A stretch of DNA of 64,000 nucleotides, taken from NCBI GenBank assembly GCA_018873225.1, contig JAEILZ010000002.1:3100001-3164000 (forward strand), given 5' to 3'. Position 1 is the first letter of the stretch, and every line of letters begins with the position of its first letter. A program made the position numbers and the translations under genes. The notes beneath the pieces were generated by a model. It ran no database searches. It had not been told where the DNA came from and was given only the letters and a program-made list of their open reading frames with translations. Below, one piece after another: positions 24,220 through 39,913 of this stretch. The DNA is from [Phialemoniopsis] sp. UDSM-2020 (lineage: Eukaryota > Ascomycota > Sordariomycetes > Thyridiales > Thyridiaceae).

Positions 24220-25580
24220 GGCTAAGTGCGGAGATGCCAAAGTCTGGCTAATGCGATGCGGCTTGGGATAAGCGGCGGTGTTGTGGAGATGACAATCACT
24301 CTCTTGACCCTCCGCGGGACGCAGTGTCGGGATGTTCGGGCGGGACAGCTACCGGCTGGCGGTGGATGCCAGGTAGGGCGACGGGCGTCATACACTGACA
24401 GGCAATGCAGTCACTGGAATGCAGTAAGCACTCAAATGCCTTCAGATCAGCTCTGCAGCGTTTCAAGGGCTTGGACAGCACGAATATCGACGTCTGGCGG
24501 AGCGACGCTGGGGTGTGTTTTGAGATCCAAAGTTTCCAAATTGCGCAAGTCCGAATGGTGTGCCAAAAATTACGTAGTAGCCATGCCGCGAGGTCCCGGC
24601 CCGCAAAACACTAGCGCGCAAACTTTGCTAATATATATACCCTTTCTCGCCCCATAAAGACGCGTGGCCGCATGTACTTCTGATAGGACTCTTAGCTTGA
24701 CAAACTTGACCCTTTTCAGCAAGTCCGCCCTGTTGACTTTTTGCCCACAAAATCACACCAGACAGCTTCACCCACGGCATCCTGCAGGCAATTATCATGG
24801 CAGTATCCACAGGCTTTGACCGGTTAAGATGTTCGATTCCCCTTGGTGTACTTACCTCTACGGACTTAATTAGTGTCGATGGAAAAGGATGCAGGAAACA
24901 GATCCGGACTATGGTCAGGATGTCCAGGTCAGTCTCAACTGGGCAGGAGCACGGATTCATTCACTCCAGTCGCCCATTCCTAAACACATCGACACTCTCT
25001 GTAACTTCCCGAGTTACTTTCTTGCATTTTCTCGCTCTTCCAGTAGAAAAGCCTCAAGATTGTACGCAAACAGCAAGACACAAGAGCTGTACCAAAATAG
25101 TAAACTTGGGCAAAAAGATCAAAAACTTACAGCACCGAGGATTCCCCAGTCGTCACCGACCTGAGTACTGATTCGGCGATTGGTAGCTTGTCTATGGGAG
25201 AGCGGACGGGATCCCGAATTCTCTACCATCTATGGCCGTAAGTGAAAGCTCATGTTCTTGCTTGGTTCATATCTCTATGCCGTGGGCAAGGAAAACATGA
25301 CATCTTGGCTAGATGAGGTCGCCAACCAAGGCAATAGAAGATAGACGAGGCCAACCTAATCAACGACGCAGTATGACATAGCCGGACAGTGATGTTGACA
25401 TTGTTCTTATTGCACAATGGTAAAAACTAAACCAGAAGGTATCGACGCGGTAACACAAGTCTATATCGGTATATCCATCCAGAAAGCCTTAGGAATAAGA
25501 AAGCTCATATCATCATAACTCCAATCTCAATCACAGCTTCTTTATTTCGCCTCCATTCATCCAGCCCACTCTTCCTACAC
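24220..25580. other. Intergenic, no gene recognised
   Basis: This 1.36 kb holds the promoter of the regulator starting at 24219 and the 3' flank of the membrane protein gene. TATATATA at 24632-24639 lies in a T/A-rich stretch. Open frames up to 143 codons have no signal peptide, domain or splice structure, and I see no gene. Confidence 0.4.
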
Positions 25581-38640: not shown

Positions 38641-38786
38641 GGGACTTGCCGTGGATCGAACACGGGACCTTCGTATTGTTAGTTTTAAGTTGCTTGTTAT
38701 TGTGTAGTTTGAATTTTTGCTTACCTCTCGCAAGGTTGTGCTCAGGTTTACCCTAAGCGAGAATCATACCACTAGACCACAAGTCC
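38641..38786 (-). tRNA. tRNA-Pro (AGG), copy 1, with an extra intron-like insertion
   Basis: A complete cloverleaf can be drawn: acceptor GGACTTG/CAAGTCC (7 bp), D-arm, anticodon stem CTCGC/GCGAG with loop TTAGGGT (anticodon AGG), T-arm CCGTG/CACGG with loop TTCGATC, and discriminator C. An 18-nt canonical intron follows base 37. A further 56-nt insertion (38724-38669) interrupts the variable loop between bases 45 and 46. It begins GTAAGC, ends AAG and has CTAAC about 15 bases before its end. Without both inserts the tRNA is 72 nt. The exons and the canonical intron are identical to copy 2, while the 56-nt insertion differs. The A and B boxes are intact and a T6 terminator follows. Confidence 0.88.
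38669..38724 (-). other. Second, spliceosomal-like insertion in tRNA-Pro copy 1
   Basis: A 56-nt A+T-rich insert in the variable loop. It has GT at the 5' end, AG at the 3' end and a CTAAC branch-like element, and its length matches the shortest mRNA introns in this window. It matches the insert of copy 2 at roughly three quarters of positions. ACAATAACAAG and AAAACTAACAA are the shared blocks. Confidence 0.7.
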
Positions 38787-39769
38787 GATGTATCCCCGAG
38801 CGTCTTATTTATGGTTATGCACTAAACATTACACGAAAGGCACACATTTTCACACTAGCAAAACCGTTCGGGCTGTCGCCCTTTTGACAGACCTACCATG
38901 CACGGGTATACAAGGTCAAGGAAAACGGTTCATATTGCCCAAAACTTGGACAGATGGTATTTTGAACATCTACAGCACAATAAAATGTCATTGGCTTCCG
39001 ATCCGGGCATCATGACTGGCCGCCGCCGCCTCCAGCGGCTCGGCCCGTGAGTGCACGCCGGCTACATACAACGTCTTCTATGAAAGTGTGCCAGTGCAAA
39101 TCAGCAATTAGCAGACCGGTATGTAGGAGAGAACGAAAAAAAAAAAAAATATCCGGTAGCTCACGCCAGAGGAGAATTCGCAGCAAAAATCTCGGTCATG
39201 AACGATATCAAACACAGGCCCGGTGGTTTGGGAGCTACCGCTCGCGTCGCATTGGGACCGAAAAGACCGAAGCTCACAACATACTTGCCTAGGGATGGAG
39301 AGGCGTCAGACCGCAGCCCAGCATCGAGACCAACTGTTCTGAATTTTGCGAGGACTCGTGTTAATCATGATGGAATGCCAGAGAGACCACGTCAATAGTG
39401 ATTCTATTACAGCCACTGATGGATGAAGGGATGAGTAGAGCGAGTTGTCCACTGAGAAGTGAGGCAGGATATTCAGGGCTGGTGTTTGTGCTTTTTGGCG
39501 GGCTTTGTCAGGCCGCACACACTGAAATGGCATGGCACTCCTCCGCCAGGGACATCGCGACTGTCACCTAGGTAGGGCTACAAAAGCGAGTTATCAGAAT
39601 TTCTTTGATCATCTGAGTGATTTGGCAATTTCATTCCAATGCATGCTTGCTACATTTGCTCCTGGATGGCGTAGGTTAGATACGGCAAAAATGTGGTGGG
39701 CGGCTCGAGGAGTTAGGTGCTTCATCTTGCGACCATAGACAAAAAGAACGGCCAGCCTTTCCATCAATT
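38787..39769. other. Spacer between the inverted tRNA genes
   Basis: A 983-bp spacer flanked by the 5' ends of the two tRNA genes, which point away from each other. It contains an A-run at about 39138-39150. No protein-coding gene, TATA-like element shared by both tRNAs, or repeat pair was recognised. Confidence 0.4.
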
Positions 39770-39913
39770 GGACTTGTGGTCTAGTGGTATGATTCTCGCT
39801 TAGGGTAAACCTGAGCACAACCTTGCGAGAGGTAGGCAAATTTCCACTAAACAATAACAAGTAATTCAAAACTAACAAATTCCAGGTCCCGTGTTCGATC
39901 CACGGCAAGTCCC
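39770..39913 (+). tRNA. tRNA-Pro (AGG), copy 2, with an extra intron-like insertion
   Basis: The same tRNA as at 38641-38786, in the opposite direction. All arms pair, the anticodon is AGG, the 18-nt canonical intron is identical, and the discriminator is C as in other eukaryotic tRNA-Pro. The 54-nt variable-loop insertion (39832-39885) begins GTAGGC and ends CTAACAAATTCCAG, a good branch-point and acceptor arrangement. T6 at 39917-39922 terminates transcription. Standard tRNA finders that allow only the anticodon-loop intron may report this as a pseudogene or miss it. Confidence 0.88.
39832..39885 (+). other. Second, spliceosomal-like insertion in tRNA-Pro copy 2
   Basis: A 54-nt insert with GT-AG ends and CTAAC shortly before the acceptor. 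It lies between bases 45 and 46 of the tRNA, a place where fungal nuclear tRNAs do not normally carry introns. Confidence 0.7.

What the first reader, a model, noticed from the sequence alone, without database searches (positions are those of the whole stretch)
38641..39913. Two tRNA-Pro(AGG) genes with a second, spliceosomal-like intron in the variable loop
Seen directly: both genes form a full cloverleaf only when two inserts are removed, the normal 18-nt intron after base 37 and a 54-56 nt insert between bases 45 and 46. The second insert has GT...AG ends and a CTAAC element near its 3' end, and matches local mRNA introns in size. All exonic bases and the canonical intron are identical between copies, but the second insert differs at roughly a quarter of positions. 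That pattern argues that the tRNA is under selection and the insert is removed. Established knowledge: fungal nuclear tRNA introns lie after base 37 and are cut by tRNA endonuclease; variable-loop introns are known in archaea and a few algae. Removal by the spliceosome, or by a relaxed endonuclease, would be new. I cannot exclude that both are inactive.
Basis: partly seen in the sequence, partly recalled or inferred. Interest (0 to 1): 0.88.

Follow-up and report, generated by a model that had tools for sequence, protein, structure and literature searches.

The report
Messenger-type introns inside fungal tRNA genes
Several transfer-RNA genes of this fungus, including those in the window, are interrupted by short inserts that look like messenger-RNA introns, which suggests that the mRNA-splicing machine also has to finish some essential tRNAs.

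Summary
Window 38641-38786 (-) and 39770-39913 (+) are tRNA-Pro(AGG) genes. Each has a canonical 18-nt intron plus a 54-56 nt GT...CTAAC...AG insert at 45/46; exons and canonical introns are identical, inserts 76%.

The window's genome (44.2 Mb) holds at least nine tRNA genes of six isoacceptors with such inserts, at five sites: Pro(AGG) x3 (one gene has two), Lys(CTT) x2, Glu(TTC), Gly(CCC), Ser(GCT, inside the anticodon) and Leu(CAA). Nine of ten are GT-AG with a branch-point-like A 10-14 nt from the 3' end; the Leu insert ends in GG. With the inserts removed ARAGORN calls the expected tRNA. None forms a strict bulge-helix-bulge.

For Lys(CTT), Pro(AGG) and Glu(TTC) my (incomplete) searches found no intact insert-free gene; the two insert-free Pro(AGG) copies have T-loop deletions. 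So these genes must probably be spliced.

Best explanation: spliceosomal introns in Pol III tRNA genes. This resembles the U6 intron; ten searches of an open-licence library listed no such report for nuclear tRNA. No RNA evidence and no relatives' genomes were available.

The parts
38641..38786 (-). tRNA-Pro(AGG) gene copy A: two introns; a T6 run begins 4 nt after its 3' end
38733..38750 (-). copy A canonical intron after base 37, 18 nt (tRNA endonuclease type)
   Evidence: alignment; ARAGORN i(38,18) on the spliced sequence
38669..38724 (-). copy A variable-loop insert (45/46), 56 nt, GTAAGC...CTAAC...AAG, spliceosomal-type
39770..39913 (+). tRNA-Pro(AGG) gene copy B: two introns; a T6 run begins 3 nt after its 3' end
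39806..39823 (+). copy B canonical intron after base 37, 18 nt, identical to copy A
39832..39885 (+). copy B variable-loop insert (45/46), 54 nt, GTAGGC...CTAAC...CAG, spliceosomal-type

Best explanation
The variable-loop inserts are U2-type spliceosomal introns lying in functional, Pol III-transcribed nuclear tRNA genes. They are one part of a wider set (ten such inserts in nine genes of six isoacceptors, one with a defective 3' end) in this Sordariomycete. The likely path has four steps. (1) Pol III transcribes the whole gene from internal A and B boxes to a downstream T run (inferred from the boxes and, in eight of nine genes, T runs). (2) The nuclear spliceosome removes the GT-AG insert and joins the exons so that the cloverleaf forms (inferred from consensus, geometry and restoration of the tRNA). 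(3) The Sen endonuclease and tRNA ligase remove the ordinary intron after base 37, where there is one (established route for fungal tRNA introns). (4) The mature tRNA serves codons for which no intact insert-free gene was found: AAG by Lys(CTT), CCU/CCC by Pro(AGG), GAA by Glu(TTC).
For: Nine of ten inserts are GT-AG, against 0.05 expected when composition-shuffled inserts keep their flanks; 9 of 10 have the full GTRNGY...YTRAY...AG layout, against 0.0007 expected (zero counts taken as 1 in 20,000); dinucleotide shuffles that keep the end letters give the full layout in 0-0.5% per insert. Of the six others, found by exon, tRNA model or B box, five fit. Branch A to 3' end is 10-14 nt in 10 of 10, beside 12-25 nt in 11 local mRNA introns; lengths 48-72 beside 55-102 nt. 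Removing the inserts turns ARAGORN's wrong call into the expected tRNA in 9 of 9 genes (insert ends were set by me from exon context), with full stems apart from one acceptor mismatch in Gly and one D-stem mismatch in Ser. The Ser(GCT) insert splits the anticodon between bases 34 and 35; a sister gene on C1 matches through that point without a break. Exons of A and B, and of Lys1 and Lys2, are identical while the inserts differ at about 24% of ungapped sites. Lys(CTT) anticodon arms were recognised at two places, both interrupted. BLAST with exons of Glu(TTC), Gly(CCC) and Leu(CAA) found no second copy. No strict bulge-helix-bulge. Precedents: S. pombe U6, a Pol III RNA, loses an mRNA-type intron by splicing (PMC10484740, passages); lichen rRNA genes carry spliceosomal introns that yeast removes from Pol I transcripts (PMC8527467, passages).
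Against: There is no RNA evidence of any kind. The Leu(CAA) insert ends in GG, so that gene, the only Leu(CAA) found, would not splice by the usual rule. Glu(TTC) has TTTT inside its insert and no T run in the 29 nt read downstream. Avoidance of T runs is not significant (1 of 10 inserts against 4 of 11 mRNA introns have T4 or more). The variable-loop insert of the C6 Pro gene is not recognisably homologous to those of A and B (28 identical columns against a shuffled mean of 27). L127 has paired tRNA ends, a T-arm and about 44 extra nt but no recognisable GT-AG insert; it was left out as unnamed, as were four other doubtful loci, so non-fitting inserts may be under-counted. The tRNA set was not read completely: 26 of 90 B-box hits were not read, one 3-mismatch Lys site was not read, and family and BLAST searches miss genes. 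Identity of exons in paired copies could also reflect recent gene conversion.
Confidence: 0.84

Rival explanations
1. The inserts are removed by the tRNA splicing endonuclease (Sen) with relaxed site choice and joined by tRNA ligase, as proposed for ectopic tRNA introns of red algae.
For: Ectopic tRNA introns attributed to an endonuclease are known in Cyanidioschyzon, and in nucleomorphs by a route not yet understood (PMC4090602, section 5 read). Six of the nine genes (Pro x3, Ser, Glu, Leu) carry an ordinary Sen intron as well.
Against: None of ten inserts reaches 4 of 4 central pairs of a strict bulge-helix-bulge in any register (looser motifs not tested). The GT, AG and branch motifs, together present in 9 of 10, have no known role in Sen cleavage. 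Inserts of 48-72 nt in the D-loop, inside the anticodon and in the variable loop do not fit the eukaryotic ruler mechanism described in PMC4090602.
Confidence: 0.05
2. The interrupted genes are dead copies or relics; inserts are tolerated because other genes supply these tRNAs.
For: Damaged tRNA copies exist in this genome: two C8 Pro(AGG) genes with T-loop deletions, a Glu 5' fragment and a Lys 3' fragment (L106). The Leu insert lacks a 3' AG. Ser(GCT) has an uninterrupted sister gene. The survey of tRNA genes was incomplete.
Against: The two Lys(CTT) anticodon arms recognised in the 44 Mb assembly both lie in interrupted genes (one 3-mismatch site not read). Pro(AGG) has no intact insert-free copy among those found. 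No second Glu(TTC) was found, and Glu(CTC) should not read GAA (established decoding). Exons are identical between copies while inserts diverge. Dead genes would not be expected to keep splice signals in 9 of 10 cases.
Confidence: 0.08
3. The spliceosome acts, but on Pol II read-through transcripts that contain the tRNA genes, while the Pol III product is a dead end.
For: Spliceosomes normally work on Pol II transcripts. For Glu(TTC) no T run was seen in the 29 nt read downstream.
Against: A and B boxes are kept in the nine interrupted genes (by eye) and a downstream T run was seen in eight of nine. Introns in the D-loop begin with the G that restores the A-box GG. U6 shows that Pol III RNA can be spliced (PMC10484740, passages).
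Confidence: 0.03

Closest known systems
mRNA-type intron of the U6 snRNA gene (Schizosaccharomyces pombe)
   Same: A spliceosomal (mRNA-type) intron inside a Pol III-transcribed non-coding RNA gene (PMC10484740, passages).
   Different: U6 is part of the spliceosome and its intron is attributed to reverse splicing near the catalytic bases. Here the hosts are tRNA genes of six isoacceptors, at five positions. The three U6 matches found in this genome span 92-102 bases over the full 105-position model, so leave no room for an intron.
Spliceosomal introns in ascomycete and lichen rDNA
   Same: Short spliceosomal introns (one of 57 bp was used) in a structural RNA made by a polymerase other than Pol II (PMC8527467, passages; Bhattacharya et al. 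2000 and Cubero et al. 2000 seen only as citations).
   Different: Pol I and rRNA rather than Pol III and tRNA.
Ectopic tRNA introns of Cyanidioschyzon merolae and of nucleomorphs
   Same: Introns at non-canonical positions, several per gene in some tRNAs, including the D arm (PMC4090602, section 5; PMC3978253, passages).
   Different: In Guillardia they are 3-24 nt; in C. merolae the bulge-helix-bulge is held to be critical. These are 48-72 nt, with spliceosomal signals and without a strict bulge-helix-bulge.
Canonical fungal tRNA intron (after base 37)
   Same: The Pro, Ser, Glu and Leu genes carry one as well.
   Different: The inserts described here lie elsewhere in the tRNA.
Introner-like elements of fungi
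   Same: Spread of new spliceosomal introns (recalled; seen as a citation).
   Different: BLAST of seven of the ten inserts against the own genome found only their own loci and one Glu fragment. It also missed the known 76%-identical Pro B and Lys2 inserts, so only near-identical families are excluded.

Membership tests
U2-type spliceosomal intron | GT 5' end and AG 3' end | tested here: met
   9 of 10 inserts, including both in the window; the Leu(CAA) insert ends in GG
U2-type spliceosomal intron | branch-point motif (YTRAY) near the 3' end | tested here: met
   10 of 10, branch A 10-14 nt from the end
U2-type spliceosomal intron | length like local mRNA introns | tested here: met
   48-72 nt against 55-102 nt in 11 local introns
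U2-type spliceosomal intron | removal by the spliceosome through a lariat | not testable with these tools
   no RNA data
functional nuclear tRNA gene | full cloverleaf and correct anticodon once inserts are removed | tested here: met
   ARAGORN expected identity in 9 of 9 genes; stems full except one acceptor pair in Gly and one D pair in Ser
functional nuclear tRNA gene | Pol III A box and B box | tested here: met
   by eye in the nine interrupted genes; the two C8 copies fail (T-loop deletions)
functional nuclear tRNA gene | Pol III T-run terminator downstream | tested here: inconclusive
   T5-T7 run 3-42 nt downstream in 8 of 9; none in the 29 nt read after Glu(TTC)
functional nuclear tRNA gene | expression | not testable with these tools
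   no RNA data
bulge-helix-bulge (Sen-type) ectopic tRNA intron | two 3-nt bulges around a 4-bp helix at the splice sites | tested here: not met
   best central helix is 3 of 4 pairs; relaxed variants of the motif not tested

The most novel reading that the evidence does not exclude
In this fungus the spliceosome is an obligatory tRNA-processing enzyme. Essential tRNAs, at least Lys(CTT), Pro(AGG) and Glu(TTC), can be made only after spliceosomal introns in the D-loop, anticodon arm or variable loop are removed from Pol III transcripts, some of which then pass to the Sen endonuclease for a second, different splicing. The insert-free C8 Pro pair, which keeps the Sen intron but lacks bases beside A58, could be a gene-converted cDNA of such a half-spliced, m1A58-modified precursor (speculation).
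Probability: 0.68. Interest if true: 0.94.

Novelty: new variant of a known kind. Interest (0 to 1): 0.9.

Why it matters
Nuclear tRNA introns and mRNA introns are taught as two separate worlds with separate enzymes. A fungus in which several tRNA genes, some apparently the only source of their tRNA, carry spliceosomal introns would join the two. It would show that spliceosomes work on structured Pol III transcripts on a useful scale and make translation directly dependent on splicing. It would also open intron gain in non-coding genes to direct test, including insertion inside an anticodon and repeated insertion at G18|G19. It would further warn that annotation programs miss or misname such genes: ARAGORN gave wrong identities for all nine unspliced genes.

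Tried and rejected
Annotation as Leu(TAG) with a 52-54 nt intron (ARAGORN): rejected, because it disappears when the insert is removed. Strict bulge-helix-bulge splicing: rejected. Near-identical mobile intron family: no further copies of seven inserts in the genome, but that search also missed the known Pro B and Lys2 inserts at 76%. Selection against Pol III terminator runs inside the inserts: not significant (1 of 10 against 4 of 11). Common descent of the C6 and C4 variable-loop introns: not shown by sequence. Relatives: exact exon patterns gave 0 matches in viral contigs and in bacterial and archaeal contigs, as expected for a fungus; no fungal genome other than the window's own was available. 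The RF00005 search misses intact genes (for example the six Gly(GCC)), so it is not a census. Patterns as such are not enriched: one search gave 107 hits against 293 for the backwards control, one search gave 90 against 105; only hits inside a complete tRNA were used. Left out of all counts as doubtful: L103, L104, L106, L107 and L127. Pro(CGG) L046 was not counted as a carrier because removing its GTATGT...TACTAAC...TAG stretch would not leave a Pro anticodon loop. Names given by eye against ARAGORN: L045 Pro(CGG) (ARAGORN: Ser(CGA)) and L060 Ser(GCT) (ARAGORN: Glu(TTC)). Literature: ten searches listed no report of spliceosomal introns in nuclear tRNA genes; only open-licence papers are held, and most listed papers were seen as titles and abstract starts only.

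Full report
Observation. Their exons and the 18-nt intron after base 37 are identical. The second insert, between bases 45 and 46, is 56 nt (GTAAGC...CTAAC...AAG) in A and 54 nt (GTAGGC...CTAAC...CAG) in B, with 41 identical of 54 ungapped columns. Both genes have an intact A box and B box and a T6 run 4 and 3 nt downstream.

Other Pro genes. The window lies in a 44.18 Mb assembly of 11 contigs that can be searched. The Pro D-arm word occurs at eight places with at most one mismatch. Pro(TGG) on C5 and, by eye, Pro(CGG) on C9 (ARAGORN: Ser(CGA)) have only ordinary introns. A third Pro(AGG) gene on C6 has three inserts: 66 nt GTGAGT...CTAAC...CAG between bases 26 and 27, an ordinary 21-nt intron of different sequence, and 59 nt GTATGT...TTAAC...AAG at the same 45/46 site as in the window. 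A head-to-head pair on C8 shares short 5' flanks with A and B and has no variable-loop insert, but one copy lacks C56 and the other C56-G57 of the T-loop, the core of the Pol III B box. Thus no intact insert-free Pro(AGG) gene was found.

Other tRNAs. The same kind of insert turned up in Lys(CTT) twice (C6, D-loop, 58 and 54 nt), Ser(GCT) (C10, 48 nt between anticodon bases 34 and 35, next to an ordinary intron), Gly(CCC) (C6, D-loop, 55 nt), Glu(TTC) (C1, D-loop, 72 nt, plus an ordinary 45-nt intron) and Leu(CAA) (C1, 51 nt between 32 and 33, GTGAGT...CTAAC but ending in GG). That is ten inserts in nine genes of six isoacceptors. By my tally of nuclear tRNA genes or gene-like loci seen (47 of its 62 matches, the other 15 lying on C3, a 28.9-kb tRNA-rich contig that I take to be mitochondrial; 8; 1; 2; 9; 5), this is 9 of 72. 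Five doubtful loci were left out. One of them, L127, has paired ends, a T-arm and about 44 extra nt without a recognisable GT-AG insert. The survey is incomplete: of 90 B-box hits, 26 were not read. Families without inserts include six Gly(GCC) and three Glu(CTC) genes. All four D-loop inserts fall at G18|G19, so that the first base of the intron restores the GG of the A box (position numbers assigned by me).

Statistics. With flanks kept and inserts composition-shuffled, a GT-AG register is expected in 0.05 of ten inserts and seen in nine; the full GTRNGY-branch-AG layout is expected in at most 0.0007 (zero counts taken as 1 in 20,000) and seen in nine. Dinucleotide shuffles, which keep the end letters, give the full layout in 0-0.5% per insert. 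Selection of cases matters. The other six were found through exons, the tRNA family model or the B box, and five of those six fit. Branch A lies 10-14 nt from the 3' end in all ten. Eleven ORF-supported introns of the window have similar 5' ends and lengths of 55-102 nt. That set was chosen with branch-point and splice-site filters, so its motif content is not independent; its lengths and T runs are.

What removal does. Before removal ARAGORN misnames all nine genes (Leu, His, Thr, Ile, Tyr, Phe); after removal of the inserts alone it gives Pro(AGG) x3, Ser(GCT), Lys(CTT) x2, Gly(CCC), Glu(TTC) and Leu(CAA). I set the insert ends from the exon context, so for Leu, where the end is not AG, the restored anticodon is not independent evidence. 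Stems are complete apart from one acceptor pair in Gly and one D-stem pair in Ser (stems typed by hand; for Lys a register shifted by one base was entered, and I judge by eye that the register starting GCCCGGT also gives 7 of 7 acceptor pairs).

Necessity. Lys(CTT) anticodon arms were sought with up to three mismatches and as a 13-base core. The two interrupted genes are the only ones recognised. Of the other hits, two read in context are not tRNA and one 3-mismatch site on C7 was not read. A Lys 3' fragment on C5 lacks the anticodon arm (L106). BLAST with exons of Glu(TTC), Gly(CCC), Ser(GCT) and Leu(CAA) found only the genes already named, the Ser(GCT) sister on C1 and the three Glu(CTC) genes at 78%. 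GAA codons should not be read by a CTC anticodon (established decoding rules), so Glu(TTC), and by the same kind of argument Pro(AGG), should be essential. A divergent missed copy cannot be excluded.

Mechanism. The signals are those of the major spliceosome, nine of ten inserts leave exactly the tRNA exons when cut at their GT and AG, and a strict bulge-helix-bulge is absent in all ten. That a spliceosome can act on a Pol III transcript is known from U6 of fission yeast (PMC10484740, passages read). Spliceosomal introns in rRNA are known from lichen fungi, and their removal was modelled in yeast (PMC8527467, passages read). A review of tRNA introns describes canonical introns and bulge-helix-bulge or very short ectopic ones, and supposes insertions in D or T arms of eukaryotic tRNA genes to be mostly pseudogenes and non-canonical introns to be rare (PMC4090602, section 5 read; also PMC3978253, passages). 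Removal, polymerase and order of the two splicings are inferred here, not shown.

Against. The Leu(CAA) insert lacks AG although it is the only Leu(CAA) gene found; it may be broken or use an unusual site. The Glu gene has one TTTT inside its insert and no T run in the 29 nt read downstream, while the other eight genes have one 3-42 nt downstream. T-run avoidance is not significant. The C6 variable-loop intron is too diverged to be matched to those of A and B. The inserts are not a near-identical repeated family. Nothing is known of related species from these tools. The host is a Sordariomycete whose nearest named match, in one protein, is Thyridium curvatum at 82% identity.

Verdict. The finding is real and is best read as spliceosomal introns in functional nuclear tRNA genes, a new variant of a known kind of intron in a class of gene where ten searches of an open-licence library listed none.

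Noticed in passing
L046, genome C8:2874986 (+): A second tRNA-Pro(CGG)-like gene whose 73-nt insert at the canonical place contains GTATGT...TACTAAC...TTTAG; base 37 would be T, and removing the GT-AG stretch would not leave a Pro anticodon.
   Followed up: partly
L005, genome C8:2737460-2737880: Insert-free Pro(AGG) pair sharing short flanks with the window pair, each copy missing one or two bases of the T-loop next to A58; this may be intron loss through a cDNA.
   Followed up: partly
L116, genome C1:2349113-2349273: The only Leu(CAA) gene found carries an insert with GTGAGT and CTAAC that ends in TGG instead of an AG.
   Followed up: partly
L127, genome C1:3474486-3474768: A tRNA-like locus with fully paired ends and a T-arm, about 44 nt longer than a plain tRNA, whose identity and insert I could not resolve.
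   Followed up: partly
L164, genome C1:1299703-1299742: A fragment of Glu(TTC) 5' exon plus the first part of its D-loop insert, about 1 kb from the whole gene on the other strand.
   Followed up: partly
L106, genome C5:1106477: A Lys(CTT) 3' fragment with a 3' flank like that of the two whole Lys genes.
   Followed up: no
genome C1, C4, C6, C7, C8, C10, C11: Several tRNA genes lie as close inverted pairs: head to head (Pro on C4 and C8, Lys, Thr, Arg on C6) or tail to tail (Ile on C1, Gly on C7, Asp on C10, Ser on C11).
   Followed up: no
window 25124-25243 (-): A 5S rRNA gene, uninterrupted (Rfam 87.3 bits).
   Followed up: no
L065, genome C4:6073465-6073595: Thr(CGT) gene (ARAGORN) with a 59-nt insert at the canonical position that contains CTAAC but has no fitting GT-AG register by eye.
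   Followed up: no
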